The translations under genes and the position numbers were made by a program. A DNA stretch of 64,000 bases from Ischnura elegans. Taxonomy: Eukaryota > Arthropoda > Insecta > Odonata > Coenagrionidae. The notes under the pieces were generated by a model. The model did not search any database and was not told where the DNA came from. It saw only the letters and a program-made list of their open reading frames with translations. Positions 11,514 through 64,000 of this stretch are shown piece after piece. The stretch covers positions 1,116,001 through 1,180,000 of the forward strand of contig NW_025791658.1 in NCBI RefSeq assembly GCF_921293095.1. The letters are read 5' to 3'. Numbering within the stretch: the first letter of the stretch is position 1; every line of letters starts with the position of its first letter.

Positions 11514-11698
11514 ATTTTGACAGTGTTTTTCCACGTTATTTCTTTGTAATTTACAAAACTTTTTCCTTAACCAGCAATTATATTTTTAAGTTTTTTTTTT
11601 AAGCTAGGCTTAACCGGCGCCAAAGAGGTATTACACTGAACTTTGATTGAGAGATTTGTATGAAATTATTTCGAGCTGAATTGGGCCGTGTATTATAT

Positions 11699-22025: not shown

Positions 22026-22099
22026 TCAAAACTTGAACTGTTTTCCATTAAAACAACACCAAAACCAGCCTTGCACCTTGTTAATAAAAATTTATATAA

Positions 22100-34962: not shown

Positions 34963-34984
34963 CTGTAGAGAAATGATAAAATTG

Positions 34985-35119
34985 TTTATATATATATATA
35001 TAGAGAGAGTCTCTTCTTGCCTCCCTCCCGACGAAGACCCTAAGAGGTCGAAAATTTGAAAGAAACTAACGTGTGAGTCCTCTTTTATTTGTGTCTGTGT
35101 TTTTGTGGCCTATCATGGC

Positions 35120-36290: not shown

Positions 36291-37319
36291 CTTGCTACCT
36301 TGATCAATCCCCTGGTTAATTGCCGATTCTGAACCCTTAGCTAAGTTAAAAAAAGGATAATGAGGAACGTTTATGGTAATTGTGTCAATACCGGGAAAAA
36401 ATATCATTTTCCTGCAAACCTGAAATTAAGTTTTTTTCCTTCGAGAAATCTTAAATATTTTTAAACTATTCACTCGGCGTTTGATTATGGTTGCACGAAA
36501 ACTTCCGGGGGCCCGAATTATTTCTCATTTTTCATGATTTTGGCCTTTTCAATGGCTATAGTTTATGTAAACCCTCATAATCTATCTATGGTTATAAGGT
36601 GTAACATAATGTAAACAAGCCACCATGTTGTTTGTAAATAATTAAACACTAAAAATGGTAGTGAGGGACGGGGGAGATTGTTGTGAACGGAAAGAGGGGA
36701 GTCGTGCATGGAGAGGAGGAAGAGATGGACGTGATAGAAAGGATCGGGAGAAAAATCAAAGAGTGGTGTATTGTGCGACCGGAGGAAGTAATACGGCTGA
36801 GCACATGATCGGCAGGAGGAATTAAAGATGCGGAGAAGAAGGAGGCGTCTACGAGAGAGAGAGACAGCGGAGGAAAGGGATACGAAGAGCTCATAACCCC
36901 CACACTGGTGCAGTTCATGGCGGTGGTTCAGTGAGTGGTAGTACGGATAATATAAATGGGACTGTGATAGTCATGGTAGCTTTTTGATGTTGTTTTTTGC
37001 TCCCAAGTTTCAAAATATAGATCTTGTTTTTTAATTGTACTGAAATTATGTGTTAAGTTATTAGAGGATATTTAAAAACGTTACAAAGATATAAATATAC
37101 GTTAAGAATTGGGAAAAAATCTATATGTATTAAATAAAATTAAGTAGCTGAACGACGTTTTAATCTGAAATGTTGCTTATTCAGGAAAATGGCCTCGGCA
37201 GTCTTCGTGCATCCCACCCGAAATGGGCTGGCAGTAAATAGGGTGAAATAAGGATCCGTGACCGATATCACTCGACTCGACCCATCCCGAATAACTACGG
37301 AAACAACGAAATGCCTAAC
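36291..37319. other. Intron 1 of the minus-strand Toll-like gene, otherwise unassigned
   Basis: A purine-rich stretch at about 36655-36900 (GAGAGAGAGAC, GAAGAAGGAGGCG) has no recognisable coding sequence. The rest is AT-rich. No terminal repeats are seen. Confidence 0.4.
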
Positions 37320-38785: not shown

Positions 38786-39240
38786 TCTTTGAACCTGAAA
38801 TGTAATGAATACTGATAAAAAATTAAATACCAATTGTAATAAATATACGAGAAACACTATGAAACATGTTACGGAGCTGATACTGCTGTACCGCTTTCGT
38901 ATAACGTCGGAAAGACAATATTTGGAAGTAGAAATGAGTACCAAGAATCGCAATAGTAATAAAAAAATATGGATTATGTGAAACTGGTTTATATAGATCC
39001 ATTTGTTATCTCTGTCACCGATATCATCGGAAAACCTGAACAAAATAGTTTCAAAATAATCAACATTAATCACATATATTCATAAAATTGCAGAGGGCTT
39101 CAATGATTTCAACCTGCCATGTTACGAGAAATTTTTTAACGAAAACAAAAGTAAAGAGTTACCTTGGTGACTCTTTACTATAAAACAACCCAGTTAAAAC
39201 AGAAGAAAATTTTAGGAAAAAAAATTATTATTGTTAATGT

Positions 39241-42365: not shown

Positions 42366-42738
42366 GTGCAAAAGCCAGCAGAAAATGCTTGCCTAAAATG
42401 CTTGAGTATTTCATAACTAGCCATTAATTATTGTAATTCAATCTGCAATGATAAAATTAAAGTCAATGAAAAAATGTGAAATAGATGCTCTTCTGAGAAC
42501 ATTTTGGCTTTGACTTATTTCTTTCAAACCGTAAAGCATGTCTAATTTATAGTGGATTTAGGTCAAATAACAACAACATCTCATTGCAAACATAATATCT
42601 AAGGATTTTATTTATCCAATATGACGTTATTTGTCATATACGTGGCATAAAAAGGTATAGGGTTACATACGACAGTAAAAACAGCATATTCGTATGAGAC
42701 GGCAATGTATTGTAGTGCGGGTTGTATAACTGCATACA
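42366..42738. other. Spacer before the tandem array
   Basis: AT-rich, no supported gene. The last ~40 bases (GCGGGTTGTATAACTGCATA) resemble the tail that precedes unit 48112 (CGGGTTGTATATATTATA), so a remnant of an earlier unit tail may be present. Confidence 0.4.
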
Positions 42739-44982
42739 GACTCGCACGCTCCGCGCGCTCGTTAAGGGGCTCCGCCCCTTAAAACCCCGGTTCCGGCTTC
42801 GCCGTCTACATTTGTGGTCGTTCGAAGACTTTTGAAGTTCGAATAATCTCAACACGGCTAGGGGCCGGCTTCGCCGGCCAGGGGGTAGGGAGGTGCCCCA
42901 CTCATTCCTCGGAACGGCTTCGCCGTTCCTCGCTGAAGGGCGGCTTCGCCGCCTGGGGGTTTAGTGTGCCAGAGGGCGAGGGCATTTCGGAACTGTTTCA
43001 CCGTTATTCGTTTAAGGGGCGGCTTCGCCGCCCAGAGGTGGGGGGAGTCCACAGCGGTTGCGCCGCTTGAACATCGGGGCGGCTACGCCGCCCGGGGGTT
43101 GCTGTAGCTCCCCCTCGCCTACGCCAGTTCCTCGTTGTGGGGCGGCTTCGCCGCCTTGGGGTTGAGGAGCCCCCCCGCGGCTGCTCCGCCTAGTCCTTAT
43201 AATCGGTCTTCCCCGCCGAGAGGGGTGCCCAGGGGGATTCGGGGATTTTAATGTGTTATGCATGCGGTCACCAAAAGTCCACAGTGATCATGTAGCGATG
43301 ATTTTAAAAGGTAGTGCAATACGGATTAATAGTGGCGACAAGTACCCATAAAAGAAGACTTAATGGCAAGTTTTTCATTTTTTTTTCGGGGGGTTCCTAC
43401 GGAATACCGGGGGTTTTATACTTGTGTTAAACCAGTGGTCACTAATAGTTCTCATAAATTCCGTGCCGATAAGTCCTAGGGGACCGGAAGAGTGGTCTTA
43501 CGATTCTTTTCCCTGGAGAGGCTATTTATTAGAAATTTTTTGGGAGGTTTCACGGGGTTATCGGGGGTTTTAATAAGTGGTAGGGGCACCGGTTAAATTG
43601 TGTCGAAAACTATTCGGAAAGCCGAGTTTAAATTTGTTTTATTTTTTTTCGGCGATGTTCCAGGAGGTAATCGGGGGTGTTCTGGTATTTTTTCCCGTAT
43701 GGTTTACGGTGGCTCGCCCTCACCAAATATTCCGGATCTAGAGCTCAGAGGGGACGGGTAGTGCGGCGTAATGTTTGCGAGAAGTTCCCAAATAGGAGAC
43801 TAAATGACACATTTTACATTTGGGGGGGATTTCACGGGGATACCGGGGGTTTAAATGTGTGTACTCCTGGCGGTCACCATCCATTCACATAAATTTCGGG
43901 GGGATGAGTCGTTGGGGGCGGTGGAATAGTCACGAAAAGTACACAAAAAGTAGACTTAAATGCAAAATTTTATTTTTGGGGGGTAGGTATGTGGGTTTAC
44001 CGGGGGTTTATAGATTTTTACTGCCAGCGGTCATCAATCGTCCACATCAATTCCGTAGCGATGAGTGGTAAGGATTGGAAAAGCGGCGGAATTGTGACGA
44101 AAGCACCCGAAAAGGCTAATTATATGCAAATTTTAATTTTTAGGGGGTTTCGGGGGGTTTAAAGATGACGATAGTATATGGTCACATTCATATACTGTCA
44201 TATCTAAAAGAAGTATGCCCTACGACATCCATATTTCGAGAGCAATACAATAAAAAGCAATCCAGTCCCTGAAAAAAGTGAGTAGTGCCCGCCATTTTTA
44301 TTTTTTCGCGGTTTAATCCATTGAATCATTTATAAAATGTTTATGTTTAATAAAAGACAATGCATTGCTGTATGTAACTACAAAGTTTGAAAGAAATCGG
44401 TCAGGTAAAAATTGACAAAATCTAGTGTTAATCTTTTGGAAATCGTAATTTTCGGTGATTTTCGGAATATTTTAATTTTTTTCTGAGTAACCAAGGACGA
44501 CGAAAGAAAATTGTTACCTAGATTTCTTAGAAGATGTTATAAGCATATATAATAATCATTTTCGTTATCCTACACCTTAAATTAAGTCGAAGGGAGCGGA
44601 AGTTATGATATTTTATTCGAAAAACGAATTTTTGGACGCCATTTTGGCTGCAATTTTCTTAAAAACAAATTAATATCATTACGTAATAACGTGCCCACGT
44701 TTAACAGCTTTCAGGAAATGCATTAATGATCCGTGTGGCACGCACGGTTCGCGCGCAGTAAAATAAAAACCGAAAGACGATCCCCGGAAAAAGCGCGATT
44801 TCGGCCATTTTGTCGTCCTAGCAACGCCACGTGGCGGAAACTTCCGGTTTTCGGATTTTTCCTCCGGATCATTTCGGGTTCCCCGCACGCGTGCCAAATT
44901 TCAGCTCTCCAGCACTTCTAGAAGTGGTCGGGAATTTGTATCCATGAGTGAGTCAGTCACCACGCCGGCTGTATATAGATAG
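42739..44982 (+). repeat. Array unit, type A (2244 bp), first copy
   Basis: Near-identical to the units at 56266, 58510 and 60754. Examples of differences: G at 43411 versus C at 56938, and C at 44243 versus T at 57770. The head runs from 42739 to about 43240 with around ten hairpins. The tail palindrome CACTTCTAGAAGTG is at 44913-44926. It is separated from the other type A units by the diverged and dimeric units. Confidence 0.9.
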
Positions 44983-47900
44983 GACTCGCCGCGCTGCGCG
45001 CGCTCGTTAGGGGGCTACGCCCCCTAAAACCCCCCGCATCCGGCTTCGCCGGCTGCCCCCGCCGGACGGCTTCGCCGTCCACCCCTCGACTGCTCGGAAC
45101 GGCTTCGCCGTTCCTCGCCGAGGGGTCGTCTTCGCCGTTCCTCGCCGAGGGGTCGTCTTCGCCGCCCATATATTTAGGTAGCCCTCCGACAGACAGCAGC
45201 TGGTTCCTTGGAACGGCTTCGCCGTTCATCGTGTGAGGGCGGCTTCGCCGCACAAGGGTTAACCGAGTCCCCCCTAGGCGTGGACTCCTGGGAACGGCAT
45301 CGCCCTTCCTCGTGCCGGGGCGGCTTCGCCGCCCAACGTGTACCGGTGTTCCCCCGAGACTGCGACAACTCGGAACGGCTGCGCCGTTCCTCGCCGCCCC
45401 CACCGGACGGCTTCGCCGTCCCACCCGGGTCTCCTCGGAACGGCTTCGCCCTTTCTCGTTGTGGGTCGGCTCCGCCGCCCATATATTGAGGCAGCCCTCC
45501 AACAGACACCAGCTAGCACCTCGGAACGGCTTCGCCGCTCATCGTGTTAGGGCGACTTCGCCGCCCAAGGGTTACCCGAGTCCCCCCGAGGCGTGGACTA
45601 CAGGGAACGGCATCGCCCTTCCTAGTGGCGGGGCGGCTTCGCCGCCCAAGGTTTACCGGTGTTCCCGCGCGCCTTCGACAACTCGGAACGGCTGCGCCGT
45701 TCCTCGCCTGTGGGCGGCTTCGCCGCCCAAGGATTATCTCGCCGTGATGGGGCGGCTTCGCCACCCGAGGTTTACCTATTTCCCCGCGCCATCGCCTCCT
45801 TGGAACGGCTGCGCCGTTCCTCGCGTGAGGGCGGCTTCGCCGCCCAAGGGTTATCGGCGCCCTCCGTCGTAAGCTTCCTCGTAATGGGGCGGGCTCGCCG
45901 CCCAGGGTTTACCCGTGTTCCCCCGAGGCGTCGACTCCTGGGAACGGCGTCGCCCTTCCACGTGATAGGGCGGCTTCGCCGCCCAAGGTTTACTGTGTCC
46001 CCCCGAGCCGTCGACTCCTGGGAACGGCATCGCCCTTCCGCGTGATGGGGCGGCTCCGCCGCCCAAGGTTTACTTTGTCCCCCCGAACCGTCGACTCCTC
46101 GGAACGGCGTCGCCGTTCCTCGTATTTGGGCGGCTTAGCCGCCCAAGGGTTATCGGTGCCCTCCCCCCTCGTAAGACACCCATTCGGCTGCTCCACGTGT
46201 TTGAGCGGATTTGCCGCCCGAGGGTTCTCGGAGGTTTTCCGCGCGTCTGACTCCTTGGAATGTCTCCGTCGTTCCTGGGGCGGGGGCAGCTTCGCCGCCA
46301 GGGTTTTCACTCGTCACAGAGCACTGCGTACTAACAGCTTTCCCCGATCGTTTACAAAGGCTGCCGGGGGATAATTTGGCTGAATGTAGACGCATGCTAG
46401 CCGTGATTGTGGCATTTTAGCTTATGACGATGTTTTGAAGGGGGTCCGGGGGGTTATCAGGGGTTTTTATGAGTATACTGACAACGGTCGCAATCATCCA
46501 AATAAGTTCCTTAGCGATGAGTCATAGGAGAAGGGAATTACTGCTAAAATATGCGAAAACACCGAAGAACATGCTATTCACAGAAAAAAAATAAATTTTT
46601 CCCTGGTCTTCTTGGAAGCCACGTGAAATATCGAGGGGTTTTCTTGCATAAAAGGTCTTTGTCTACCTACAGTAAAAATTCCAGCGATGTAACTGTAGGG
46701 GAACAATGAAGTTTCCCGTATTACTCACATTTAGATTACCCATTCTGTGTTCTCCACATAGCGGTGCATAGTACCTGTAATAAGGCATTACTCACGCGAA
46801 TTTTGTGGCCGTACCTTACGGGGAAGTGGTTTTAAAAAATGCGTTAAGGTGTACATGTGCCAGAGTCCTCATTTTCTCTCTACTATTTTGTTAATAAATG
46901 CACATTTAAAATTTAGAATTTTTATTGCGGGTGTGTAAATGTGCATGGATAATGGAACATAACGGTTAAATATAGCCGACAAAATTCCCATTTCGAATCA
47001 ATAAAAACGATACAACTGGGATGAATGGTGCACGAAATATACGACTTATTAAGTAATTTTTATTTTTTTGGGGGGTTCACAGGGAGTTATCGGGGGATTT
47101 TATTTGCTTGTCCCGTATAACGCGGCATCGTTTACCTTGGATAAAAATTTCGGCTCTGTAGCTGTAGTGTAAGCATGCTTTTTCGACGGTGTCACCCGTT
47201 AAAATTAATTATTCTGCGTTCTCCTGGTAGCGGCGCGTAGGGGCACGAGAAAGAAGTCAATCACCTGAATTTGGTGTCCGTACCACGTCGGGAAGTGGTA
47301 AAAAAAAATTCCGAAAAATTTAAAATCGTGTGTTGAGGGAATGCAAACTTCACGGCGGATGTGTTGTAAGTTACCAAACGTTGTAGGAGTCGCAAATTCA
47401 ATGAAAATACATAATCGTTAATTACTCGAAGTTTGATTAACATGTGGATATCAAAGGATAGCCAAAAAATTAAGAAAAAAATCTAGTATCTTGCATGAAA
47501 TTGAATTGGTCCTACAATTATTGCAAATTGGTCAAAAAAATTCCCAAAGTGAGCCCATAAGAAAAGCATTGGAAATTTTAAATTGTTAAAAAAAATACTT
47601 TTAAACAAAAAATTGCAAAGGCAACCACACCAAAAAATCAACCAAAAAATCTAGTATCTCATAAGTTAAGGACTTATTCGTACAACGATTAAAAGTTGGT
47701 TTTAAAAAAATCCAAAGATAGGCCCATAAGAAAAGCATTGGAAATTTAAAAAAATTATAAAAAATACTTATAAACAAAATATGGCAAAATGTTTCACATC
47801 AAAAAATCGGCCAAAAAATCTAGTTTCCCTCAGTGACATTTCATGTTCCCGTGACATTTTCAAGTAGGCAAAAAATGGAATATGTTTTAGTCCCATAAGG

Positions 47901-48111
47901 CTCCAATGTTAATTCGGATCGATATATCTCGAAAACCGATCGACTTTTTCGAGTTTTCGGACTTTTCCCCCCGATGAATATTTTTTCTCCACGACCTGTA
48001 AAAATTTCGTCTTCCCAGCACGTCCGGAAGTGGTCGGGAATTTGTATACGTGAATGAGTGAGTGAATCAGTGAGTGTGCTATCTGTCACACATCGGGTTG
48101 TATATATTATA
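44983..48111 (+). repeat. Divergent 3.1-kb unit with extended hairpin cluster
   Basis: It shares the head start, G-rich monomer style and tail with other units, but most of the sequence differs. The head (44983 to about 46340) holds some 33 hairpins alternating between GGAACGGC…GCCGTTCC and GGGCGGC…GCCGCCC types in subrepeats of roughly 90-110 bp. The body contains AT-rich tandem repeats of about 175 bp near 47470-47815, sharing CCCATAAGAAAAGCATTGGA. The tail palindrome is CACGTCCGGAAGTG (48019-48032). Confidence 0.85.
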
Positions 48112-51100
48112 GACTCGCACGCTCCGCGCGCTCGTTAAGGGGCTCCGCCCCTTAAAAACCCTGGTTCCGGCTTCGCCGTCTATTTGTGTTCGCTCGAAGA
48201 CTTTTTAAGTTCGAATAATCTCACCTCAGCTAGTCTTCGCCGGCCAGGGGGTAGGGAGGCGCCCCACCCATTCCTCGGAACGGCTTCGCCGTTCCTCGCT
48301 GAAGGGCGGCTTCGCCGCCCAGGGGTTCAGTGTGCCCCCCCGGGGCTTCCCCGCTTAATACTCGGAACGGCTTCGCCGTTCCTCGTCTAAGGTCGCCATA
48401 GCCGCCCAGAGGGCAAAGGCATTTCGGAGCTGTTTCACCGTTTTTCGTTTGAGGGGAGTCCACAGCTTCTGCGCCGCTTGAACATCGGGGCGGCTTCGCC
48501 GCCCGAGGGTTACTGAAGTTTCTCCTCGCCTACGCCAGTTACTCCGCGGAACGGCTTCGCCGTTCCACGTTCTGGGGCGGCTTCGTCGCCTTGGGATTGA
48601 GGATTTTTTTTGGTGATGTTCCAGGAGGTGATCGGGGGTTTTCTGGTATTTTTCCCGTATGGTTTACGGTGGCTCGCCCTCACAAAATATTCCGGATCTA
48701 GAGCTCAGAGGGGACGGGAAGTGCGGCGTAATGTTTGAGATAAGTTCCCAAATGGGAGACTTAATGGCACATTTTACATTTGGGGGGTAATTCAGGGGGA
48801 TTCCGGGGGTTTATGTGTGTATTGCAGGTGGTCACCATCCGTTCAAATAATTTCCGTGGGGATGAAACGTTGGGGGCGGTGGTATACTCACGAAAAGTAC
48901 ACAAAAAGTAGAGTAATATGCAAAATTTTATTTTTAGGGGGGTGCATGTGGGTTTACCGGGGGTTTATAGGTTTGTCCTACCAGGGGTCATCAGTCGTCG
49001 ACATCAATACCGTAGTGATGAGTGGCAAGGCTTGGGATAGTGGCGGAATCGTGACGAAAAATACCCGAAAAGGCTACTTATATGCAAATTTTAATTTTTA
49101 GAGGGTTTCGGGGGGTTTAAATATGACGATACCATATGGTCACATTCATTTGCTGTCATATCTAACAGAAGTGTGCCCTATGAACTCCATATTTCAGGAG
49201 TAATACAAAAAAAAGGAAACCAGTCCCCGAAAAAAGTGAGTAGTGCCCGCCATTTTTATTTTTTCGCGTTTAAATCCATGAAATCATTTACTAGATGTTT
49301 ATGTTTTCTGAAAGACAATTCATAGTTGTATGTAACTACAAAGTTTGAAAGAAATCAGTCGGGTAAAAATTGACAAAACCTTGTGTTAATCTTTTGGAAA
49401 TCGTAATTTTCGGTGATTTTCGGAATACTTTAATTTTTTTCTGAGTAACCAAGCACGATGAAAGAAAATTGTTACCTACATTTCGTAGACGAAGTGATGA
49501 GCATATATAATAATCATTTTCGTTATCCAACACCTTAAATTAAGTCGAGGGGAGGGGAAAGTTTGATTTTTTTTCGAAAAATCAATTTTTGGATGCCATT
49601 TTAGCTGTAACTTTCTCAAATGGAAACTAATAAATTTACTTAATTACGTGCCTACGTTCATCAGCTTTCAAAAAATGCATTAACAACTTGGGTGGCACGC
49701 ACGGTTCGCGCGCAGTAAAATAAAAACCGAAATACGGTCACCGGAAAAAGCCCGATTTCGGCCATTTTGTCGTCCTAGCGACGACACGTGGCGGAAACTT
49801 CCGGTTTTCGGATTTTTCCTCCGGATCATTTCGGGTTCCCCGTACGCGTGCCGAATTTCAGCTCTCCAGCACTTCTAGAAGTGGTCGGGAATTTGTATCC
49901 ATGAGTCAGTCACCACAAGGGCTGTATATGGATGGGACTCGCACGCTCCGCGCGCTCGTTAAGGGGCTCCGCCCCTTAAAACCCCGGTTCCGGCTTCGCC
50001 GTCTACATTTGTGGTCGTTCGAAGACTTTTGAAGTTCGAATAATCTCAACACGGCTAGGGGCCGGCTTCGCCGGCCAGGGGGTAGGGAGGTGCCCCACTC
50101 ATTCCTCGGAACGGCTTCGCCGTTCCTCGCTGAAGGGCGGCTTCGCCGCCTGGGGGTTTAGTGTGCCAGAGGGCGAGGGCATTTCGGAACTGTTTCACCG
50201 TCATTCGTTTAAGGGGAGGCTTCGCCGCCCAGAGGTGGGGGGAGTCCACAGCGGTTGCGCCGCTTGAACATCGGGGCGGCTACGCCGCCCGGGGGTTGCT
50301 GAAGCTCCCCCTCGCCTACGCCAGTTCCTCGTTGTGGGGCGGCTTCGCCGCCTTGGGGTTGAGGAGCCCCCCCGCGGCTGCTCCGCCTAGTCCTTATAAA
50401 TGGTCGTCCCCACCGAGAGGGGTGCCCAGGGGGATTCAGGGATTTTAATGTGTTATGCATGCGGTCACCAAAAGTCCACAGTGATCATGTAGCGATGATT
50501 GTAAAAGGTAGTGCAATGCGGATTAATAGTGGCGACAAGTACCCATAAAAGAAGACTTAATGGCAAGTTTTTCATTTTTTTTCGGGGGGTTCCTACGGAA
50601 TACCGGGGGTTTTATACTTGTGTTAAACCAGTGGTCACTAATAGTTCTCATAAATTCCGTGCCGATAAGTCCTAGGGGACCGGAAGAGTGGTCTTACGAT
50701 TCTTTTCCCTGGAGAGGCTATTTATTAGAAATTTTTTGGGAGGTTTCACGGGGTTATCGGGGTTTTAATAAGTGGTAGGGGCACCGGTTAAATTGTGTCG
50801 AAAACTATTCGGAAAGGCGAGTTTAAATTTGTTTTATTTTTTTTCGGCGATGTTCCAGGAGGTAATCGGGGGTGTTCTGGTATTTTTTCCCGTATGGTTT
50901 ACGGTGGCTCGCCCTCACCAAATATTCCGGATCTAGAGCTCAAAGGGGACGGGTAGTGCGGCGTAATGTTTGCGAGAAGTTTCCAAATAGGAGACTAAAT
51001 GACACATTTTACATTTGGGGGGGATTTCACGGGGATACCGGGGGTTTAAATGTGTGTACTCCTGGCGGTCACCATCCATTCACATAACATCCATTTCGGG

Positions 51101-52188
51101 GGGATGAGTCGTTGGGGGCGGTGGAATAGTCACGAAAAGTACCGAAAAAGTAGACTTATTTGAAAATTTTATTTTTTGGGGGGGGGGGGTGTATGTGGGT
51201 TTACCGGGGGTTTATAGGTTTTTACTGCCAGCGGTCATCAATCGTCCACATCAATTCCGTAGCGATGAGTGGTAAGGATTGGAAAAGCGGCGGAATTGTG
51301 ACGAAAGTTACCCGACAAGGCTACTTATATGCTAATTTTAATTTTTTAGGGGGTTTCGGGGGGTTAAAAGATGACGGTACTATATGGTCACATTCATTTA
51401 CTGTCATGTCTAAAAGAATTGTGCCCTATGACATCCATATTTCGAAAGTAATACAATAAAAAGCAAACCAGTCCCTGAAAAATGTTAGCAGTGCCCGCCA
51501 TTATTATTTTTTCGCGGTTAAATCCATTAAATAATTATTAAAATGTTTAAGTTTTCTGAAAGAAATTGCATAGCTGTATGTAACTACAAAGTTTGAAAGA
51601 AATCGGTTGAGTTAAAATTGACAAAACCTTTTGTTAATCTTTTGAAAATCGTAATTTTCGGTGATTTTCGGAATATTTTAATTTTATTCTCAGTAACCAA
51701 GGACGATGAAAGAAAAACGTTACCTACATTTCGTAGACTATGTTATGAGCATATATAATAATCATTTTCAATATCCTACACCTGTAATTACGACTAGGGG
51801 AGCGGAAGTTATGAAATATTTTTCGAAAAACCAATTTTTGGACGCCATTTTTGCAGCAAATATCTTAAAAAGAAACTTATATGATAAAATAATTACGTTA
51901 CTACATTTACCAGCTTTCAAAAAATGCATTAACGATCCGTGTGGCACGCACGGTTCGCGCGCAGTAAAATAAAAACCGGAAGACGGTCCCCGGAAAAAGC
52001 GCGATTTCGGCCATTTTGTCGTCCTAGCGACGACACGTGGCGGAAACTTCCGGTTTTCGGATTTTTCCTCCGAATCATTTCCGGTTCCCCGCACGCGTGC
52101 CAAATTTCAGCTCTCCAGCACTTCTAGAAGTGGTCGGGAATTTGTATCCATGAGTGAGTCAGTCACCACAAGGGCTGTATATAGATAG
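48112..52188 (+). repeat. Array dimer, copy 1 (1824 + 2253 bp)
   Basis: Units 48112-49935 and 49936-52188. The short unit lacks about 420 bp between the head and the middle monomers compared with type A. The pair is repeated as a block at 52189-56265 with one difference seen. Confidence 0.92.
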
Positions 52189-55100
52189 GACTCGCACGCT
52201 CCGCGCGCTCGTTAAGGGGCTCCGCCCCTTAAAAACCCTGGTTCCGGCTTCGCCGTCTATTTGTGTTCGCTCGAAGACTTTTTAAGTTCGAATAATCTCA
52301 CCTCAGCTAGTCTTCGCCGGCCAGGGGGTAGGGAGGCGCCCCACCCATTCCTCGGAACGGCTTCGCCGTTCCTCGCTGAAGGGCGGCTTCGCCGCCCAGG
52401 GGTTCAGTGTGCCCCCCCGGGGCTTCCCCGCTTAATACTCGGAACGGCTTCGCCGTTCCTCGTCTAAGGTCGCCATAGCCGCCCAGAGGGCAAAGGCATT
52501 TCGGAGCTGTTTCACCGTTTTTCGTTTGAGGGGAGTCCACAGCTTCTGCGCCGCTTGAACATCGGGGCGGCTTCGCCGCCCGAGGGTTACTGAAGTTTCT
52601 CCTCGCCTACGCCAGTTACTCCGCGGAACGGCTTCGCCGTTCCACGTTCTGGGGCGGCTTCGTCGCCTTGGGATTGAGGATTTTTTTTGGTGATGTTCCA
52701 GGAGGTGATCGGGGGTTTTCTGGTATTTTTCCCGTATGGTTTACGGTGGCTCGCCCTCACAAAATATTCCGGATCTAGAGCTCAGAGGGGACGGGAAGTG
52801 CGGCGTAATGTTTGAGATAAGTTCCCAAATGGGAGACTTAATGGCACATTTTACATTTGGGGGGTAATTCAGGGGGATTCCGGGGGTTTATGTGTGTATT
52901 GCAGGTGGTCACCATCCGTTCAAATAATTTCCGTGGGGATGAAACGTTGGGGGCGGTGGTATACTCACGAAAAGTACACAAAAAGTAGAGTAATATGCAA
53001 AATTTTATTTTTAGGGGGGTGCATGTGGGTTTACCGGGGGTTTATAGGTTTGTCCTACCAGGGGTCATCAGTCGTCGACATCAATACCGTAGTGATGAGT
53101 GGCAAGGCTTGGGATAGTGGCGGAATCGTGACGAAAAATACCCGAAAAGGCTACTTATATGCAAATTTTAATTTTTAGAGGGTTTCGGGGGGTTTAAATA
53201 TGACGATACCATATGGTCACATTCATTTGCTGTCATATCTAACAGAAGTGTGCCCTATGAACTCCATATTTCAGGAGTAATACAAAAAAAAGGAAACCAG
53301 TCCCCGAAAAAAGTGAGTAGTGCCCGCCATTTTTATTTTTTCGCGTTTAAATCCATGAAATCATTTACTAGATGTTTATGTTTTCTGAAAGACAATTCAT
53401 AGTTGTATGTAACTACAAAGTTTGAAAGAAATCAGTCGGGTAAAAATTGACAAAACCTTGTGTTAATCTTTTGGAAATCGTAATTTTCGGTGATTTTCGG
53501 AATACTTTAATTTTTTTCTGAGTAACCAAGCACGATGAAAGAAAATTGTTACCTACATTTCGTAGACGAAGTGATGAGCATATATAATAATCATTTTCGT
53601 TATCCAACACCTTAAATTAAGTCGAGGGGAGGGGAAAGTTTGATTTTTTTTCGAAAAATCAATTTTTGGATGCCATTTTAGCTGTAACTTTCTCAAATGG
53701 AAACTAATAAATTTACTTAATTACGTGCCTACGTTCATCAGCTTTCAAAAAATGCATTAACAACTTGGGTGGCACGCACGGTTCGCGCGCAGTAAAATAA
53801 AAACCGAAATACGGTCACCGGAAAAAGCCCGATTTCGGCCATTTTGTCGTCCTAGCGACGACACGTGGCGGAAACTTCCGGTTTTCGGATTTTTCCTCCG
53901 GATCATTTCGGGTTCCCCGTACGCGTGCCGAATTTCAGCTCTCCAGCACTTCTAGAAGTGGTCGGGAATTTGTATCCATGAGTCAGTCACCACAAGGGCT
54001 GTATATGGATGGGACTCGCACGCTCCGCGCGCTCGTTAAGGGGCTCCGCCCCTTAAAACCCCGGTTCCGGCTTCGCCGTCTACATTTGTGGTCGTTCGAA
54101 GACTTTTGAAGTTCGAATAATCTCAACACGGCTAGGGGCCGGCTTCGCCGGCCAGGGGGTAGGGAGGTGCCCCACTCATTCCTCGGAACGGCTTCGCCGT
54201 TCCTCGCTGAAGGGCGGCTTCGCCGCCTGGGGGTTTAGTGTGCCAGAGGGCGAGGGCATTTCGGAACTGTTTCACCGTCATTCGTTTAAGGGGAGGCTTC
54301 GCCGCCCAGAGGTGGGGGGAGTCCACAGCGGTTGCGCCGCTTGAACATCGGGGCGGCTACGCCGCCCGGGGGTTGCTGAAGCTCCCCCTCGCCTACGCCA
54401 GTTCCTCGTTGTGGGGCGGCTTCGCCGCCTTGGGGTTGAGGAGCCCCCCCGCGGCTGCTCCGCCTAGTCCTTATAAATGGTCTTCCCCACCGAGAGGGGT
54501 GCCCAGGGGGATTCAGGGATTTTAATGTGTTATGCATGCGGTCACCAAAAGTCCACAGTGATCATGTAGCGATGATTGTAAAAGGTAGTGCAATGCGGAT
54601 TAATAGTGGCGACAAGTACCCATAAAAGAAGACTTAATGGCAAGTTTTTCATTTTTTTTCGGGGGGTTCCTACGGAATACCGGGGGTTTTATACTTGTGT
54701 TAAACCAGTGGTCACTAATAGTTCTCATAAATTCCGTGCCGATAAGTCCTAGGGGACCGGAAGAGTGGTCTTACGATTCTTTTCCCTGGAGAGGCTATTT
54801 ATTAGAAATTTTTTGGGAGGTTTCACGGGGTTATCGGGGTTTTAATAAGTGGTAGGGGCACCGGTTAAATTGTGTCGAAAACTATTCGGAAAGGCGAGTT
54901 TAAATTTGTTTTATTTTTTTTCGGCGATGTTCCAGGAGGTAATCGGGGGTGTTCTGGTATTTTTTCCCGTATGGTTTACGGTGGCTCGCCCTCACCAAAT
55001 ATTCCGGATCTAGAGCTCAAAGGGGACGGGTAGTGCGGCGTAATGTTTGCGAGAAGTTTCCAAATAGGAGACTAAATGACACATTTTACATTTGGGGGGG

Positions 55101-56265
55101 ATTTCACGGGGATACCGGGGGTTTAAATGTGTGTACTCCTGGCGGTCACCATCCATTCACATAACATCCATTTCGGGGGGATGAGTCGTTGGGGGCGGTG
55201 GAATAGTCACGAAAAGTACCGAAAAAGTAGACTTATTTGAAAATTTTATTTTTTGGGGGGGGGGGGTGTATGTGGGTTTACCGGGGGTTTATAGGTTTTT
55301 ACTGCCAGCGGTCATCAATCGTCCACATCAATTCCGTAGCGATGAGTGGTAAGGATTGGAAAAGCGGCGGAATTGTGACGAAAGTTACCCGACAAGGCTA
55401 CTTATATGCTAATTTTAATTTTTTAGGGGGTTTCGGGGGGTTAAAAGATGACGGTACTATATGGTCACATTCATTTACTGTCATGTCTAAAAGAATTGTG
55501 CCCTATGACATCCATATTTCGAAAGTAATACAATAAAAAGCAAACCAGTCCCTGAAAAATGTTAGCAGTGCCCGCCATTATTATTTTTTCGCGGTTAAAT
55601 CCATTAAATAATTATTAAAATGTTTAAGTTTTCTGAAAGAAATTGCATAGCTGTATGTAACTACAAAGTTTGAAAGAAATCGGTTGAGTTAAAATTGACA
55701 AAACCTTTTGTTAATCTTTTGAAAATCGTAATTTTCGGTGATTTTCGGAATATTTTAATTTTATTCTCAGTAACCAAGGACGATGAAAGAAAAACGTTAC
55801 CTACATTTCGTAGACTATGTTATGAGCATATATAATAATCATTTTCAATATCCTACACCTGTAATTACGACTAGGGGAGCGGAAGTTATGAAATATTTTT
55901 CGAAAAACCAATTTTTGGACGCCATTTTTGCAGCAAATATCTTAAAAAGAAACTTATATGATAAAATAATTACGTTACTACATTTACCAGCTTTCAAAAA
56001 ATGCATTAACGATCCGTGTGGCACGCACGGTTCGCGCGCAGTAAAATAAAAACCGGAAGACGGTCCCCGGAAAAAGCGCGATTTCGGCCATTTTGTCGTC
56101 CTAGCGACGACACGTGGCGGAAACTTCCGGTTTTCGGATTTTTCCTCCGAATCATTTCCGGTTCCCCGCACGCGTGCCAAATTTCAGCTCTCCAGCACTT
56201 CTAGAAGTGGTCGGGAATTTGTATCCATGAGTGAGTCAGTCACCACAAGGGCTGTATATAGATAG
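52189..56265 (+). repeat. Array dimer, copy 2 (4077-bp duplicate)
   Basis: Exact-length duplicate of 48112-52188. The only difference I found is G at 50406 versus T at 54483. This implies very recent duplication, gene conversion, or an assembly effect. Confidence 0.92.
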
Positions 56266-59200
56266 GACTCGCACGCTCCGCGCGCTCGTTAAGGGGCTCC
56301 GCCCCTTAAAACCCCGGTTCCGGCTTCGCCGTCTACATTTGTGGTCGTTCGAAGACTTTTGAAGTTCGAATAATCTCAACACGGCTAGGGGCCGGCTTCG
56401 CCGGCCAGGGGGTAGGGAGGTGCCCCACTCATTCCTCGGAACGGCTTCGCCGTTCCTCGCTGAAGGGCGGCTTCGCCGCCTGGGGGTTTAGTGTGCCAGA
56501 GGGCGAGGGCATTTCGGAACTGTTTCACCGTTATTCGTTTAAGGGGCGGCTTCGCCGCCCAGAGGTGGGGGGAGTCCACAGCGGTTGCGCCGCTTGAACA
56601 TCGGGGCGGCTACGCCGCCCGGGGGTTGCTGTAGCTCCCCCTCGCCTACGCCAGTTCCTCGTTGTGGGGCGGCTTCGCCGCCTTGGGGTTGAGGAGCCCC
56701 CCCGCGGCTGCTCCGCCTAGTCCTTATAATCGGTCTTCCCCGCCGAGAGGGGTGCCCAGGGGGATTCGGGGATTTTAATGTGTTATGCATGCGGTCACCA
56801 AAAGTCCACAGTGATCATGTAGCGATGATTTTAAAAGGTAGTGCAATACGGATTAATAGTGGCGACAAGTACCCATAAAAGAAGACTTAATGGCAAGTTT
56901 TTCATTTTTTTTTCGGGGGGTTCCTACGGAATACCGGCGGTTTTATACTTGTGTTAAACCAGTGGTCACTAATAGTTCTCATAAATTCCGTGCCGATAAG
57001 TCCTAGGGGACCGGAAGAGTGGTCTTACGATTCTTTTCCCTGGAGAGGCTATTTATTAGAAATTTTTTGGGAGGTTTCACGGGGTTATCGGGGGTTTTAA
57101 TAAGTGGTAGGGGCACCGGTTAAATTGTGTCGAAAACTATTCGGAAAGCCGAGTTTAAATTTGTTTTATTTTTTTTCGGCGATGTTCCAGGAGGTAATCG
57201 GGGGTGTTCTGGTATTTTTTCCCGTATGGTTTACGGTGGCTCGCCCTCACCAAATATTCCGGATCTAGAGCTCAGAGGGGACGGGTAGTGCGGCGTAATG
57301 TTTGCGAGAAGTTCCCAAATAGGAGACTAAATGACACATTTTACATTTGGGGGGGATTTCACGGGGATACCGGGGGTTTAAATGTGTGTACTCCTGGCGG
57401 TCACCATCCATTCACATAAATTTCGGGGGGATGAGTCGTTGGGGGCGGTGGAATAGTCACGAAAAGTACACAAAAAGTAGACTTAAATGCAAAATTTTAT
57501 TTTTGGGGGGTAGGTATGTGGGTTTACCGGGGGTTTATAGATTTTTACTGCCAGCGGTCATCAATCGTCCACATCAATTCCGTAGCGATGAGTGGTAAGG
57601 ATTGGAAAAGCGGCGGAATTGTGACGAAAGCACCCGAAAAGGCTAATTATATGCAAATTTTAATTTTTAGGGGGTTTCGGGGGGTTTAAAGATGACGATA
57701 GTATATGGTCACATTCATATACTGTCATATCTAAAAGAAGTATGCCCTACGACATCCATATTTCGAGAGTAATACAATAAAAAGCAATCCAGTCCCTGAA
57801 AAAAGTGAGTAGTGCCCGCCATTTTTATTTTTTCGCGGTTTAATCCATTGAATCATTTATAAAATGTTTATGTTTAATAAAAGACAATGCATTGCTGTAT
57901 GTAACTACAAAGTTTGAAAGAAATCGGTCAGGTAAAAATTGACAAAATCTAGTGTTAATCTTTTGGAAATCGTAATTTTCGGTGATTTTCGGAATATTTT
58001 AATTTTTTTCTGAGTAACCAAGGACGACGAAAGAAAATTGTTACCTAGATTTCTTAGAAGATGTTATAAGCATATATAATAATCATTTTCGTTATCCTAC
58101 ACCTTAAATTAAGTCGAAGGGAGCGGAAGTTATGATATTTTATTCGAAAAACGAATTTTTGGACGCCATTTTGGCTGCAATTTTCTTAAAAACAAATTAA
58201 TATCATTACGTAATAACGTGCCCACGTTTAACAGCTTTCAGGAAATGCATTAATGATCCGTGTGGCACGCACGGTTCGCGCGCAGTAAAATAAAAACCGA
58301 AAGACGATCCCCGGAAAAAGCGCGATTTCGGCCATTTTGTCGTCCTAGCAACGCCACGTGGCGGAAACTTCCGGTTTTCGGATTTTTCCTCCGGATCATT
58401 TCGGGTTCCCCGCACGCGTGCCAAATTTCAGCTCTCCAGCACTTCTAGAAGTGGTCGGGAATTTGTATCCATGAGTGAGTCAGTCACCACGCCGGCTGTA
58501 TATAGATAGGACTCGCACGCTCCGCGCGCTCGTTAAGGGGCTCCGCCCCTTAAAACCCCGGTTCCGGCTTCGCCGTCTACATTTGTGGTCGTTCGAAGAC
58601 TTTTGAAGTTCGAATAATCTCAACTCGGCTAGGGGCCGGCTTCGCCGGCCAGGGGGAAGGGAGGTGCCCCACTCATTCCTCGGAACGGCTTCGCCGTTCC
58701 TCGCTGAAGGGCGGCTTCGCCGCCTGGGGGTTTAGTGTGCCAGAGGGCGAGGGCATTTCGGAACTGTTTCACCGTTATTCGTTTAAGGGGCGGCTTCGCC
58801 GCCCAGAGGTGGGGGGAGTCCACAGCGGTTGCGCCGCTTGAACATCGGGGCGGCTACGCCGCCCGGGGGTTGCTGTAGCTCCCCCTCGCCTACGCCAGTT
58901 CCTCGTTGTGGGGCGGCTTCGCCGCCTTGGGGTTGAGGAGCCCCCCCGCGGCTGCTCCGCCTAGTCCTTATAATCGGTCTTCCCCGCCGAGAGGGGTGCC
59001 CAGGGGGATTCGGGGATTTTAATGTGTTATGCATGCGGTCACCAAAAGTCCACAGTGATCATGTAGCGATGATTTTAAAAGGTAGTGCAATACGGATTAA
59101 TAGTGGCGACAAGTACCCATAAAAGAAGACTTAATGGCAAGTTTTTCATTTTTTTTTCGGGGGGTTCCTACGGAATACCGGCGGTTTTATACTTGTGTTA

Positions 59201-62200
59201 AACCAGTGGTCACTAATAGTTCTCATAAATTCCGTGCCGATAAGTCCTAGGGGACCGGAAGAGTGGTCTTACGATTCTTTTCCCTGGAGAGGCTATTTAT
59301 TAGAAATTTTTTGGGAGGTTTCACGGGGTTATCGGGGGTTTTAATAAGTGGTAGGGGCACCGGTTAAATTGTGTCGAAAACTATTCGGAAAGCCGAGTTT
59401 AAATTTGTTTTATTTTTTTTCGGCGATGTTCCAGGAGGTAATCGGGGGTGTTCTGGTATTTTTTCCCGTATGGTTTACGGTGGCTCGCCCTCACCAAATA
59501 TTCCGGATCTAGAGCTCAGAGGGGACGGGTAGTGCGGCGTAATGTTTGCGAGAAGTTCCCAAATAGGAGACTAAATGACACATTTTACATTTGGGGGGGA
59601 TTTCACGGGGATACCGGGGGTTTAAATGTGTGTACTCCTGGCGGTCACCATCCATTCACATAAATTTCGGGGGGATGAGTCGTTGGGGGCGGTGGAATAG
59701 TCACGAAAAGTACACAAAAAGTAGACTTAAATGCAAAATTTTATTTTTGGGGGGTAGGTATGTGGGTTTACCGGGGGTTTATAGATTTTTACTGCCAGCG
59801 GTCATCAATCGTCCACATCAATTCCGTAGCGATGAGTGGTAAGGATTGGAAAAGCGGCGGAATTGTGACGAAAGCACCCGAAAAGGCTAATTATATGCAA
59901 ATTTTAATTTTTAGGGGGTTTCGGGGGGTTTAAAGATGACGATAGTATATGGTCACATTCATATACTGTCATATCTAAAAGAAGTATGCCCTACGACATC
60001 CATATTTCGAGAGTAATACAATAAAAAGCAATCCAGTCCCTGAAAAAAGTGAGTAGTGCCCGCCATTTTTATTTTTTCGCGGTTTAATCCATTGAATCAT
60101 TTATAAAATGTTTATGTTTAATAAAAGACAATGCATTGCTGTATGTAACTACAAAGTTTGAAAGAAATCGGTCAGGTAAAAATTGACAAAATCTAGTGTT
60201 AATCTTTTGGAAATCGTAATTTTCGGTGATTTTCGGAATATTTTAATTTTTTTCTGAGTAACCAAGGACGACGAAAGAAAATTGTTACCTAGATTTCTTA
60301 GAAGATGTTATAAGCATATATAATAATCATTTTCGTTATCCTACACCTTAAATTAAGTCGAAGGGAGCGGAAGTTATGATATTTTATTCGAAAAACGAAT
60401 TTTTGGACGCCATTTTGGCTGCAATTTTCTTAAAAACAAATTAATATCATTACGTAATAACGTGCCCACGTTTAACAGCTTTCAGGAAATGCATTAATGA
60501 TCCGTGTGGCACGCACGGTTCGCGCGCAGTAAAATAAAAACCGAAAGACGATCCCCGGAAAAAGCGCGATTTCGGCCATTTTGTCGTCCTAGCAACGCCA
60601 CGTGGCGGAAACTTCCGGTTTTCGGATTTTTCCTCCGGATCATTTCGGGTTCCCCGCACGCGTGCCAAATTTCAGCTCTCCAGCACTTCTAGAAGTGGTC
60701 GGGAATTTGTATCCATGAGTGAGTCAGTCACCACGCCGGCTGTATATAGATAGGACTCGCACGCTCCGCGCGCTCGTTAAGGGGCTCCGCCCCTTAAAAC
60801 CCCGGTTCCGGCTTCGCCGTCTACATTTGTGGTCGTTCGAAGACTTTTGAAGTTCGAATAATCTCAACACGGCTAGGGGCCGGCTTCGCCGGCCAGGGGG
60901 TAGGGAGGTGCCCCACTCATTCCTCGGAACGGCTTCGCCGTTCCTCGCTGAAGGGCGGCTTCGCCGCCTGGGGGTTTAGTGTGCCAGAGGGCGAGGGCAT
61001 TTCGGAACTGTTTCACCGTTATTCGTTTAAGGGGCGGCTTCGCCGCCCAGAGGTGGGGGGAGTCCACAGCGGTTGCGCCGCTTGAACATCGGGGCGGCTA
61101 CGCCGCCCGGGGGTTGCTGTAGCTCCCCCTCGTCTACGCCAGTTCCTCGTTGTGGGGCGGCTTCGCCGCCTTGGGGTTGAGGAGCCCCCCCGCGGCTGCT
61201 CCGCCTAGTCCTTATAATCGGTCTTCCCCGCCGAGAGGGGTGCCCAGGGGGATTCGGGGATTTTAATGTGTTATGCATGCGGTCACCAAAAGTCCACAGT
61301 GATCATGTAGCGATGATTTTAAAAGGTAGTGCAATACGGATTAATAGTGGCGACAAGTACCCATAAAAGAAGACTTAATGGCAAGTTTTTCATTTTTTTT
61401 TCGGGGGGTTCCTACGGAATACCGGCGGTTTTATACTTGTGTTAAACCAGTGGTCACTAATAGTTCTCATAAATTCCGTGCCGATAAGTCCTAGGGGACC
61501 GGAAGAGTGGTCTTACGATTCTTTTCCCTGGAGAGGCTATTTATTAGAAATTTTTTGGGAGGTTTCACGGGGTTATCGGGGGTTTTAATAAGTGGTAGGG
61601 GCACCGGTTAAATTGTGTCGAAAACTATTCGGAAAGCCGAGTTTAAATTTGTTTTATTTTTTTTCGGCGATGTTCCAGGAGGTAATCGGGGGTGTTCTGG
61701 TATTTTTTCCCGTATGGTTTACGGTGGCTCGCCCTCACCAAATATTCCGGATCTAGAGCTCAGAGGGGATGGGTAGTGCGGCGTAATGTTTGCGAGAAGT
61801 TCCCAAATAGGAGACTAAATGACACATTTTACATTTGGGGGGGATTTCACGGGGATACCGGGGGTTTAAATGTGTGTACTCCTGGCGGTCACCATCCATT
61901 CACATAAATTTCGGGGGGATGAGTCGTTGGGGGCGGTGGAATAGTCACGAAAAGTACACAAAAAGTAGACTTAAATGCAAAATTTTATTTTTGGGGGGTA
62001 GGTATGTGGGTTTACCGGGGGTTTATAGATTTTTACTGCCAGCGGTCATCAATCGTCCACATCAATTCCGTAGCGATGAGTGGTAAGGATTGGAAAAGCG
62101 GCGGAATTGTGACGAAAGCACCCGAAAAGGCTAATTATATGCAAATTTTAATTTTTAGGGGGTTTCGGGGGGTTTAAAGATGACGATAGTATATGGTCAC

Positions 62201-62997
62201 ATTCATATACTGTCATATCTAAAAGAAGTATGCCCTACGACATCCATATTTCGAGAGTAATACAATAAAAAGCAATCCAGTCCCTGAAAAAAGTGAGTAG
62301 TGCCCGCCATTTTTATTTTTTCGCGGTTTAATCCATTGAATCATTTATAAAATGTTTATGTTTAATAAAAGACAATGCATTGCTGTATGTAACTACAAAG
62401 TTTGAAAGAAATCGGTCAGGTAAAAATTGACAAAATCTAGTGTTAATCTTTTGGAAATCGTAATTTTCGGTGATTTTCGGAATATTTTAATTTTTTTCTG
62501 AGTAACCAAGGACGACGAAAGAAAATTGTTACCTAGATTTCTTAGAAGATGTTATAAGCATATATAATAATCATTTTCGTTATCCTACACCTTAAATTAA
62601 GTCGAAGGGAGCGGAAGTTATGATATTTTATTCGAAAAACGAATTTTTGGACGCCATTTTGGCTGCAATTTTCTTAAAAACAAATTAATATCATTACGTA
62701 ATAACGTGCCCACGTTTAACAGCTTTCAGGAAATGCATTAATGATCCGTGTGGCACGCACGGTTCGCGCGCAGTAAAATAAAAACCGAAAGACGATCCCC
62801 GGAAAAAGCGCGATTTCGGCCATTTTGTCGTCCTAGCAACGCCACGTGGCGGAAACTTCCGGTTTTCGGATTTTTCCTCCGGATCATTTCGGGTTCCCCG
62901 CACGCGTGCCAAATTTCAGCTCTCCAGCACTTCTAGAAGTGGTCGGGAATTTGTATCCATGAGTGAGTCAGTCACCACGCCGGCTGTATATAGATAG
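56266..62997 (+). repeat. Three tandem type A units (3 x 2244 bp)
   Basis: Units 56266-58509, 58510-60753 and 60754-62997 are almost identical. Private changes include CAACTCGG and GGGGGAAGGG in the second, and CTCGTCTACG and GGGGATGGG in the third. The junctions all read TATATAGATAG/GACTCGC. Confidence 0.92.
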
Positions 62998-63118
62998 GAC
63001 TCGCCGCGCTGCGCGCGCTCGCTAGGGGGCTACGCCCCCTAGAACCCCCCCGCGGCCGGCTGCGCCGGCCGCTTCCCTGGACGGCTTCGCCGTTCCCCGA
63101 CTTCGTCGGGCGACGGCA
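62998..63118 (+). repeat. Last, partial array unit head
   Basis: It starts GACTCGCCGCGCTGCGCGCG like the divergent unit at 44983. Its first hairpin is CTAGGGGGC-TAC-GCCCCCTAG (63022-63042), followed by GGCCGGCTGCGCCGGCC and a TTC-loop hairpin. Homology to the array fades after about 63118. Confidence 0.75.
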
Positions 63119-64000
63119 TGTCCCCCGGTGTGAACAATATCGCGTCATGCATCAATGGGTAAGTACTCCGAGGGGAAAGGCATCGACCAGGTGAGTTTGA
63201 AGCCCGTACCTCGTTCTGCAGTGCTCTAAAATATATGTTAGAAATTTTCTATCTGCGAGGGTTGCGTTCCCCTTGTCGATCGTTGAAATCGCCCCTGTGG
63301 CGAAGAAGCACCGTTTTCCTCCCCCGCCTATATCTCCTGGCGATCTCTCACTGCGATAATACTTTTCGGGAAAGATTTCGGAGATGGAAACTGGTGCATT
63401 GTGCACGTACGTTGACAATAAGGATAATGGTTGGGATTCACGTGATATATCCCGTTGTCCGGTTTGCATCGTAAGTTTTACCGCGGCAAAGAAGTACGAA
63501 GAAGAAATTTTCGCTCAAAGTAAGCAATCTTTTTCTCTTTCTATCGAGCGTACAGATGTTATCACCCACTGCATTTGCCAATCGGAAGCCAAATACGGTG
63601 AAGAAAGACATTGGAATCCACGAGAAATCGTTCGTGGAGAGGAACGCAAAGTCTGCCTTAAGTAATTTTATGCAGTGTTCACCTGCGAAATGAATACGGA
63701 ATCGGAATTGGTTATGCTTGCGTCGTAAAGACGTAGCACTAATTGAAAAGTCCGTGAAATGGCTTTCGATTGTTGCCACCCCCTCGCCACGTTGAGGCTG
63801 CAGTTAGGATTTGAGAGGGGCATGCACTACAACTACTACTAAGTATTAGCTAAATGTACACAGACAGATGTCTCTGATATTGAATGACGCACACGTATTA
63901 CTCGTAATAGAGAACGTAGAAATAAATACAAGGCGTCAGTGATCATGCAAATCAAGTTTAGGTACATATACATTCTCGTCGGTGTGGCAGGAGTAGCTGA
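63119..64000. other. Unassigned right edge
   Basis: An open plus-strand frame at 63384-63665 (93 codons) contains SRCPVCIVSF and later HCICQ, a CxxC plus CxC pattern. I recognise no family and the length is compatible with chance. The remainder shows nothing I can support. Confidence 0.3.

What the first reader, a model, noticed from the sequence alone, without database searches (positions are those of the whole stretch)
42739..62997. Undescribed-looking tandem array of hairpin-headed units
Nine units head to tail over 20 kb combine features not normally seen together: a palindrome-packed GC head, G-rich monomers, an AT-rich body and a conserved tail with a palindrome. No protein is encoded. 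A diverged solitary copy at 19645-22025 shows the unit also exists outside the array, so this is more than a local satellite. Rolling-circle or other tandem-generating transposition is one possibility; unequal exchange is the simpler one.
Basis: partly seen in the sequence, partly recalled or inferred. Interest (0 to 1): 0.78.

Follow-up and report, generated by a model that had tools for sequence, protein, structure and literature searches.

The report
Tandem Helitrons beside an intact Helitron
The 20-kb array is a row of non-coding rolling-circle transposons (Helitrons) in the blue-tailed damselfly genome, joined end to end beside a larger Helitron with an intact transposase gene, and the family seems to favour landing sites that look like its own end, which could explain why it lines up in rows.

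Summary
In detail: nine units in four length classes lie head to tail at 42739-62997. The unit is not a satellite but a recently amplified non-autonomous Helitron. Unrelated flanks around other copies fix both ends. On the minus strand the element reads A|TCC...hairpins...CGAG|T, without target duplication. A 1870-aa RepHel frame (HUH, two tyrosines, PIF1; Helraiser match 6e-157) starts 2.3 kb past the array, outside the window, and its element's 3' end abuts unit 9 exactly. The genome is Ischnura elegans ioIscEleg1.1; it holds 816 exact heads and 419 exact end-to-end junctions.

Beyond a routine Helitron: (1) 46 of 51 perfect 3-nt-loop hairpins in six heads have GNA loops on the minus strand, none on the plus strand. 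(2) 12 of 15 unrelated insertion sites carry TATA within 20 nt of the 3' end (8.9% expected), as does the element's own 5' end, suggesting self-targeting as one cause of tandem growth, beside rolling-circle concatemers or unequal exchange.

Against: the 3' terminus is CGAG, not CTRR; the autonomous copy's 5' end was not found; tandem Helitrons are already known. New variant of a known kind.

The parts
42739..44982 (-). U1, non-autonomous Helitron, 2244 bp. Element proper 42741-44984; 5' end (TCC) on the right, 3' hairpin end (CGAG) on the left
44983..48111 (-). U2, divergent 3129-bp member; 16 perfect 3-nt-loop hairpins (stem >=6) in its head
48112..49935 (-). U3, 1824-bp member
49936..52188 (-). 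U4, 2253-bp member
52189..54012 (-). U5, identical to U3
54013..56265 (-). U6, 99.96% to U4
56266..58509 (-). U7, 2244 bp
58510..60753 (-). U8, 2244 bp
60754..62997 (-). U9, 2244 bp; its 5' end joins the 3' end of the autonomous Helitron
62998..64000 (-). 3' part of the autonomous Helitron; the RepHel ORF lies beyond the window at C15:1181298-1186907 (L027 1298-6907, minus strand; 65298-70907 if the window numbering is carried on)
42762..42782 (-). 3' subterminal hairpin, 9-bp stem, GGA loop on minus (example from U1)
44913..44926 (.). tail palindrome CACTTCTAGAAGTG (example from U1)
42719..42740 (+). host target flank of the leftmost unit, GGGTTGTATAACTGCATACAG|A; TATA begins 15 nt before the A
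19650..22034 (-). S, older solitary copy, tail truncated, with internal duplication

Best explanation
The array is a row of non-autonomous Helitrons on the minus strand, lying directly 3' of a larger Helitron with an intact RepHel frame. Inferred cycle: RepHel nicks at the 5' end between A and TCC, peels off one strand, terminates at the hairpin-rich 3' end at CGAG|T, and inserts the copy between an A and a T with no duplication. The target A|T is followed, on the 3' side of the new copy, by a TATA-containing stretch like the element's own 5' end (TCCTATCTATATACAG). Sites like that persist beside and at the ends of existing copies, so new copies tend to abut old ones at the exact terminal nucleotides. 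Homotypic stretches (U7-U9; U3-U4 = U5-U6) were probably made locally by rolling-circle concatemers or unequal exchange. Shown: ends, A and T at the insertion point, exact junctions, an intact RepHel frame beside the array, the target motif, strand-specific GNA loops. Inferred: that this RepHel moves the units, that the hairpins terminate transposition, and that motif likeness causes part of the tandem order.
For: Ends: 15 heads with unrelated left flanks, all with A before the head; 9 U-type tails with unrelated right flanks, T next in 8 of 9. RepHel: 1870 aa, Helitron_like_N 1.9e-31, PIF1 2.3e-50; HUH PHAHIVF, two tyrosines YLFKY, Walker GGYGKT; Helraiser 7lcc 5.8e-157 over aa 508-1848. Autonomous 3' kilobase: 11 genome copies, the query's own included; ten reach its terminal base or the next, the eleventh matches bases 1-45 and 164-1000; one more partial copy matches 574-1000 only (40 of 1114 candidates scored). 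Exact tail|head junction 419 times, reversed control 0; 816 heads, control 0. Target TATA 12 of 15 against 8.9% of 9674 background A|T sites, p 9e-11; top tetramer against an AT-matched background, 12 against 1.8 expected. GNA loops on minus 46 of 51, on plus 0. Terminal stem, 10 sequences: 2 of 9 pairs with changes on both sides.
Against: 3' terminus is CGAG, not CTRR. The autonomous element's 5' end was not found in about 10 kb upstream of the ORF, so partnership rests on the 3' end and adjacency. 3 of 15 targets lack TATA and 1 of 9 right flanks has C. The motif idea was formed on 12 of the 15 sites; of the 3 later sites 2 fit. No full two-sided empty site was recovered. Many palindromes are copies of one another, so 46 of 51 is not 46 independent events, and the head of segment E (2 hairpins) is not above its shuffles (mean 0.54, max 4). 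In one search the number of pairs with double changes is not above shuffles (291 of 500). The share of tails joined to a head genome-wide was not measured.
Confidence: 0.87

Rival explanations
1. Ordinary satellite: units arose once and spread locally by unequal exchange, with no transposition.
For: The four 2244-bp units of the array differ by 2-4 of 2244 sites, against 2-16 (mean 7.4) to 11 units elsewhere, and share three variants, partly shared by the C15b units; 4077-bp duplication.
Against: Copies on several chromosomes with unrelated flanks and the same exact ends; junctions between different element types; a RepHel element joined exactly.
Confidence: 0.04
2. Helitron, but the tandem order comes only from terminator bypass/rolling-circle concatemers, not from target likeness.
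For: [quoted passage not shown] PMC5876387 and PMC4778049 passages: precise TC-CTAG circle junctions. Regular arrays (C5, 3785-bp spacing, eight junctions among the listed places). Local likeness of units. The adjacent pair U-E occurs at two sites (C7, C3a), as a composite move would give.
Against: Heterotypic exact junctions: 8 of 10 fetched autonomous 3' ends abut a tail of another member. In the one U-E pair seen at two sites the halves differ in divergence, U 99.69% and E 97.51%, which speaks against a single joint move unless U is homogenised. TATA in 12 of 15 unrelated targets.
Confidence: 0.32
3. Helitron2/Helentron-type (HINE) element rather than a canonical Helitron.
For: Internal tandem monomers and palindromes recall HINE/DINE elements (PMC4067079 passages).
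Against: A|T rather than TT insertion; no endonuclease domain among the Pfam hits; the Helraiser match spans about 1340 aa.
Confidence: 0.05
4. The target motif is only AT-rich or promoter preference, not mimicry of the 5' end.
For: Helitrons insert at AT dinucleotides in general; A/T is frequent close to the junction.
Against: TATA exceeds an AT-matched background and the next tetramer is far behind (3e-9 against 0.0015); no excess at -36 to -20; G stands at -16 to -13 in 5-7 of 15 sites.
Confidence: 0.2

Closest known systems
Helraiser / Helibat1 (bat Helitron)
   Same: RepHel with HUH, two tyrosines and PIF1 helicase (7lcc match); 5'-TC; 3' hairpin; A|T insertion without duplication; end-to-end junction like the circle junction (PMC5876387, PMC4778049 passages)
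   Different: 3' terminus CGAG, not CTAG; many hairpins instead of one; about 380 aa more before the aligned region (aligned from aa 508 here, 124 in Helraiser); TATA-bearing targets
Tandem Helitrons of bats and Bombyx (PMC4067079 passage) and of plant centromeres (Xiong 2016, seen only in the reference list of PMC5876387)
   Same: Head-to-tail Helitrons; the PMC4067079 passage also notes distantly related Helitrons directly next to one another in bat and maize
   Different: Here the row includes an intact RepHel element and a target motif that resembles the 5' end; I did not compare sequences
Helentrons and their non-autonomous HINE/DINE-1 elements
   Same: Non-coding rolling-circle elements, some with internal tandem repeats and palindromes (PMC4067079 passages)
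   Different: Those prefer TT and their partner encodes an endonuclease (paper title); here A|T and RepHel only
IS91 / IS200-IS605 (HUH, single-strand transposition)
   Same: HUH nuclease, no target duplication, site-specific integration (PMC5876387 passages); target resembling an element end in IS605 is recalled
   Different: Prokaryotic, no helicase; resemblance of mechanism only

Membership tests
Helitron | RepHel protein (HUH Rep with two tyrosines + PIF1 helicase) in an autonomous member | tested here: met
Helitron | 5' terminus TC | tested here: met
   Units end ...TATAGATAGGA on plus = 5'-TCC on minus; 9 unrelated flanks. Not seen for the autonomous copy
Helitron | 3' terminus CTRR | tested here: not met
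   CGAG in the array, site and autonomous heads read; CAAG in the old copy S. A CTRY variant is in print (PMC6544945 passage), so I treat it as a variant terminus
Helitron | Palindrome/hairpin near the 3' end | tested here: met
   9-bp stem with GNA loop, plus a second hairpin close to the end
Helitron | Insertion between A and T, no target duplication | tested here: met
   A in 15 of 15 left flanks, T in 8 of 9 right flanks; by eye no repeat of the flanks at the three sites with both flanks unrelated (C1, C64, C2); no full empty site found
Helitron | Non-autonomous partner shares both ends with the autonomous element | tested here: inconclusive
   3' end shared; autonomous 5' end not found
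Helitron | Rolling-circle intermediates | not testable with these tools
   needs reads or wet work
Helentron (Helitron2) | TT insertion and endonuclease domain | tested here: not met
   A|T flanks; no endonuclease
Simple satellite | Found only as local tandem arrays | tested here: not met

The most novel reading that the evidence does not exclude
A Helitron lineage in which one recognition rule (A|T followed by TATA) serves both to nick its own 5' end and to choose targets. Every copy is then a preferred landing pad, and the family builds its own tandem arrays. Its 3' end has grown into a strand-specific lattice of C(GNA)G DNA hairpins on the presumed transferred strand, acting as a graded terminator or as protection of single-stranded DNA.
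Probability: 0.38. Interest if true: 0.72.

Novelty: new variant of a known kind. Interest (0 to 1): 0.52.

Why it matters
The published Helitron work of which I read passages used a bat element rebuilt from ancient copies and a wheat family mobilised under treatment. Here an animal genome holds near-identical non-autonomous copies (1-16 differences in 2244 bp among 15 units) with an intact RepHel frame beside them, so it may still be active. If target likeness drives tandem growth, it gives a simple and testable reason why Helitrons turn into satellite-like arrays. The strand-specific GNA loops are sequence evidence that one strand acts single-stranded.

Tried and rejected
Rfam and tRNA searches of the window: nothing (the tRNA search uses the bacterial code). 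Phage and plasmid blastn with one unit: no match. Patterns in viral and prokaryote contigs: none. These came partly from a vague memory of a bacterial-looking motif, which the searches did not support. Text search for the palindrome: the 30 listed of 268 papers looked unrelated. Organelle-type palindrome insertions and an rDNA spacer were considered and dropped once the RepHel neighbour was found. Segment E (about 9.3 kb at C7, 10.75 kb at C3a) was read for ORFs in the hope of an autonomous partner: no frame above 174 aa in the stretches read at C7, C3a and C12, and none of 160 aa or more over the whole of E at C7 and C3a; C1 was not read. I looked for two-sided empty sites in held sequence for 3 sites and found none spanning the junction; one left flank (C2:33.99 Mb) matches a paralogue in which the insertion point lies between A and T, but that site's right flank does not match it. 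No repeat library (such as Repbase) was available, so a named family in one cannot be excluded. Structure prediction was not run because the PDB sequence match was already strong. On re-checking I corrected one point: the U-E pair is directly adjacent at C7 and C3a only (at C12 a U2-type element lies between, at C1 an S-like one), so the divergence argument rests on one pair of sites; I therefore moved the bypass-only rival from 0.30 to 0.32 and the novel case from 0.40 to 0.38.
Full report
WHERE IT IS. The window is G000:C15:1116001-1180000 of a 1,722,721,009-base genome in 110 contigs. The lengths of C1 (170,575,982), C19 (123,641,648) and C12 (94,743,817) equal the longest, N50 and N90 scaffolds printed for Ischnura elegans ioIscEleg1.1, 110 scaffolds (PMC9975421, first of two parts of the text read). 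I take the species as settled.

THE OBSERVATION. Nine units lie head to tail at 42739-62997 in four length classes. U1, U7, U8 and U9 are 2244 bp and 99.8-99.9% alike; U3 equals U5; U4 and U6 differ by one base; U2 is a divergent 3129-bp relative. A tenth, partial head follows at 62998. The solitary copy S (19650-22034) is an older, truncated member.

DISPERSAL AND ENDS. A genome search with U8 gave 26 matches on C1, C2, C3, C7, C12, C15 and C64, several at 99-100% (9 of 1916 candidates scored, so a lower bound). Eight other sites were fetched. Where the flanks are unrelated, the homology stops at the same base: on the left A|CTCGC..., on the right ...GTATATAGATAGGA|. Over there are 15 heads with unrelated left flanks. 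Not in that count: heads that abut another member's tail, C3b (flank is a tail fragment), C15b (two heads face each other) and L063 (the stretch began inside the head). Nine U-type tails have unrelated right flanks, T next in 8 of 9; at C4:125.57 Mb the predicted right end was missed (L069). The two E-type tails read (C3a, C7) are followed by G and T. On the minus strand this is 5'-A|TCC ... CGAG|T-3' with no duplication seen: the layout of a Helitron.

THE AUTONOMOUS NEIGHBOUR. The Helitron Rep profile PF14214 gives 119 matches in the genome, none in 14 control genomes. One lies 4.0-4.6 kb right of the window, on the minus strand. The frame is 1870 aa at C15:1181298-1186907, with Helitron_like_N and PIF1, HUH, two tyrosines and Walker A. 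Its best PDB match is Helraiser, 5.8e-157 over about 1340 aa. The kilobase starting at the partial head 62998 is found in 11 copies, its own included; ten reach the terminal base or the next, the eleventh has a gap at 46-163 (40 of 1114 candidates scored; one further copy covers 574-1000 only, and weaker matches of 69-75% are listed). The array is therefore joined precisely to the 3' end of a RepHel element. Of 10 other autonomous 3' ends fetched, 8 also abut another member's 5' end (four of these, at C13:4.9-5.1 Mb, are near-identical and may not be independent) and 2 have unrelated flanks; of 10 further heads, 8 and 2. The 5' end was not found in about 10 kb upstream of the ORF, where a transposon with 821-bp inverted repeats sits (extended coordinates 71515-74847).

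SCALE. The exact junction GTATATANATAGGACTCG occurs 419 times and the exact head 816 times, reversed controls 0 (only the first 100 places of each are listed). Some arrays are regular, such as 3785-bp spacing on C5 with eight junctions listed. A long non-coding relative, E, follows a 2244-bp unit at C7 and C3a, a U2-type element at C12 and an S-like element at C1.

HAIRPINS. In six heads there are 51 perfect hairpins with 3-nt loops (stem >=6) and 10 with other loop lengths from 2 to 10. On the minus strand 46 of 51 loops read GNA (GAA 34, GGA 4, GTA 4, GCA 4); none reads GNA on the plus strand. Five of the six heads exceed the maximum of their shuffles; E, with 2, does not. In the window left of the array GNA is 3 of 21, two of these in the solitary copy S. 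That C(GNA)G DNA hairpins are unusually stable is recalled, not tested. The terminal stem, in 10 sequences, has 2 of 9 pairs with changes on both sides. The number of such pairs is not above its shuffles (291 of 500 reach it); paired cells, doubly changed cells and the covariation score are (0 of 500), and slid versions have no doubly changed cells. DNA folding is modestly better than shuffles, z -2.3 to -4.5, on both strands, so the strand claim rests on loop letters, not energies. Palindromes copied from one another reduce the independence of these counts.

TARGETS. TATA lies within positions -20 to -4 before the A in 12 of 15 unrelated sites against 8.9% of 9674 background A|T sites (p 9e-11), with no excess at -36 to -20 (2 of 15, p 0.34). 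Against an AT-matched background TATA remains far above every other tetramer (12 against 1.8 expected). The element's own tail, GGCTGTATATAGATAGG|A, has the same layout. Sites L045, L062 and S lack the motif. The idea arose on 12 sites; of three later ones two fit.

MECHANISM. Three processes fit different parts. Exact junctions between unlike members (U-E, U-U2, U-autonomous) fit insertion beside existing copies. The one U-E pair adjacent at two sites (C7, C3a) has U halves 99.69% and E halves 97.51% alike, which speaks against a single joint move unless U is homogenised; that both sites hold the same pair speaks for one. Within the window array the four 2244-bp units differ by 2-4 sites and share three variants, against 2-16 to 11 units elsewhere; the nearest of these lie on the same contig (C15b) and share some of the variants. 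So the homotypic stretches grew locally, by concatemers or unequal exchange. I cannot separate those two here.

LITERATURE. Passages read: Helitron ends and A/T insertion (PMC6544945, PMC5876387); circle junctions and the hairpin as terminator (PMC4778049); tandem arrays and Helitrons directly next to one another (PMC4067079; PMC9341512); an active wheat family (PMC13286980). Tandem Helitrons are thus known. I found no paper on this family, but only one search was aimed at it (12 listed of 428, none of the 12 with 'helitron').

VERDICT. A real, recently amplified Helitron family with a variant 3' terminus, a hairpin-rich end and a target that resembles its own start: a new variant of a known kind.

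Noticed in passing
C15:1266802-1275682 (L018-L020): Two pairs of units face each other head to head, about 88 kb from the window array, sharing some of its variants.
   Followed up: partly
L027 and L041, extended window coordinates 71515-74847: DNA transposon with 821-bp inverted repeats (95%) upstream of the RepHel frame; the stretch is near-identical in the copies at C15, C16 and C71 (97% at C3), and its repeat is common genome-wide.
   Followed up: partly
window 1393-2910 (+), 7634-8434 (+), 34242-34985 (-), 37295-39079 (-): Leucine-rich-repeat frames in inverted paralogous pairs; LRR domains confirmed for 1393-2910, 7634-8434 and 37985-39079, the first with Toll and LRR-receptor chains among its PDB matches.
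   Followed up: no
window 11694-12462 and 18882-19650: Inverted pair of a 0.77-kb repeat, 98.4%, with a hairpin near one end; its other end lies just before the solitary copy S.
   Followed up: partly
window 22260-23069 (-), 24646-25215 (+), 16868-17672 (+): Relics with GIY-YIG (Penelope-like, by recall), mariner-type and Tc-type transposase domains.
   Followed up: no
RepHel aa 29-180: Weak match to Herpes_teg_N (0.0004, below its cut-off), possibly a protease-like N-terminal domain.
   Followed up: no
C15: By rank of length C15 may be unlocalised scaffold 2 of chromosome 13, whose first ~1.5 Mb (A-morph assembly) holds the female colour-morph locus (PMC10781644 passages). Not verified, and coordinates differ between assemblies.
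   Followed up: partly
C2:37490161-37513062: Five heads of another family member 3-8 kb apart in one orientation.
   Followed up: no
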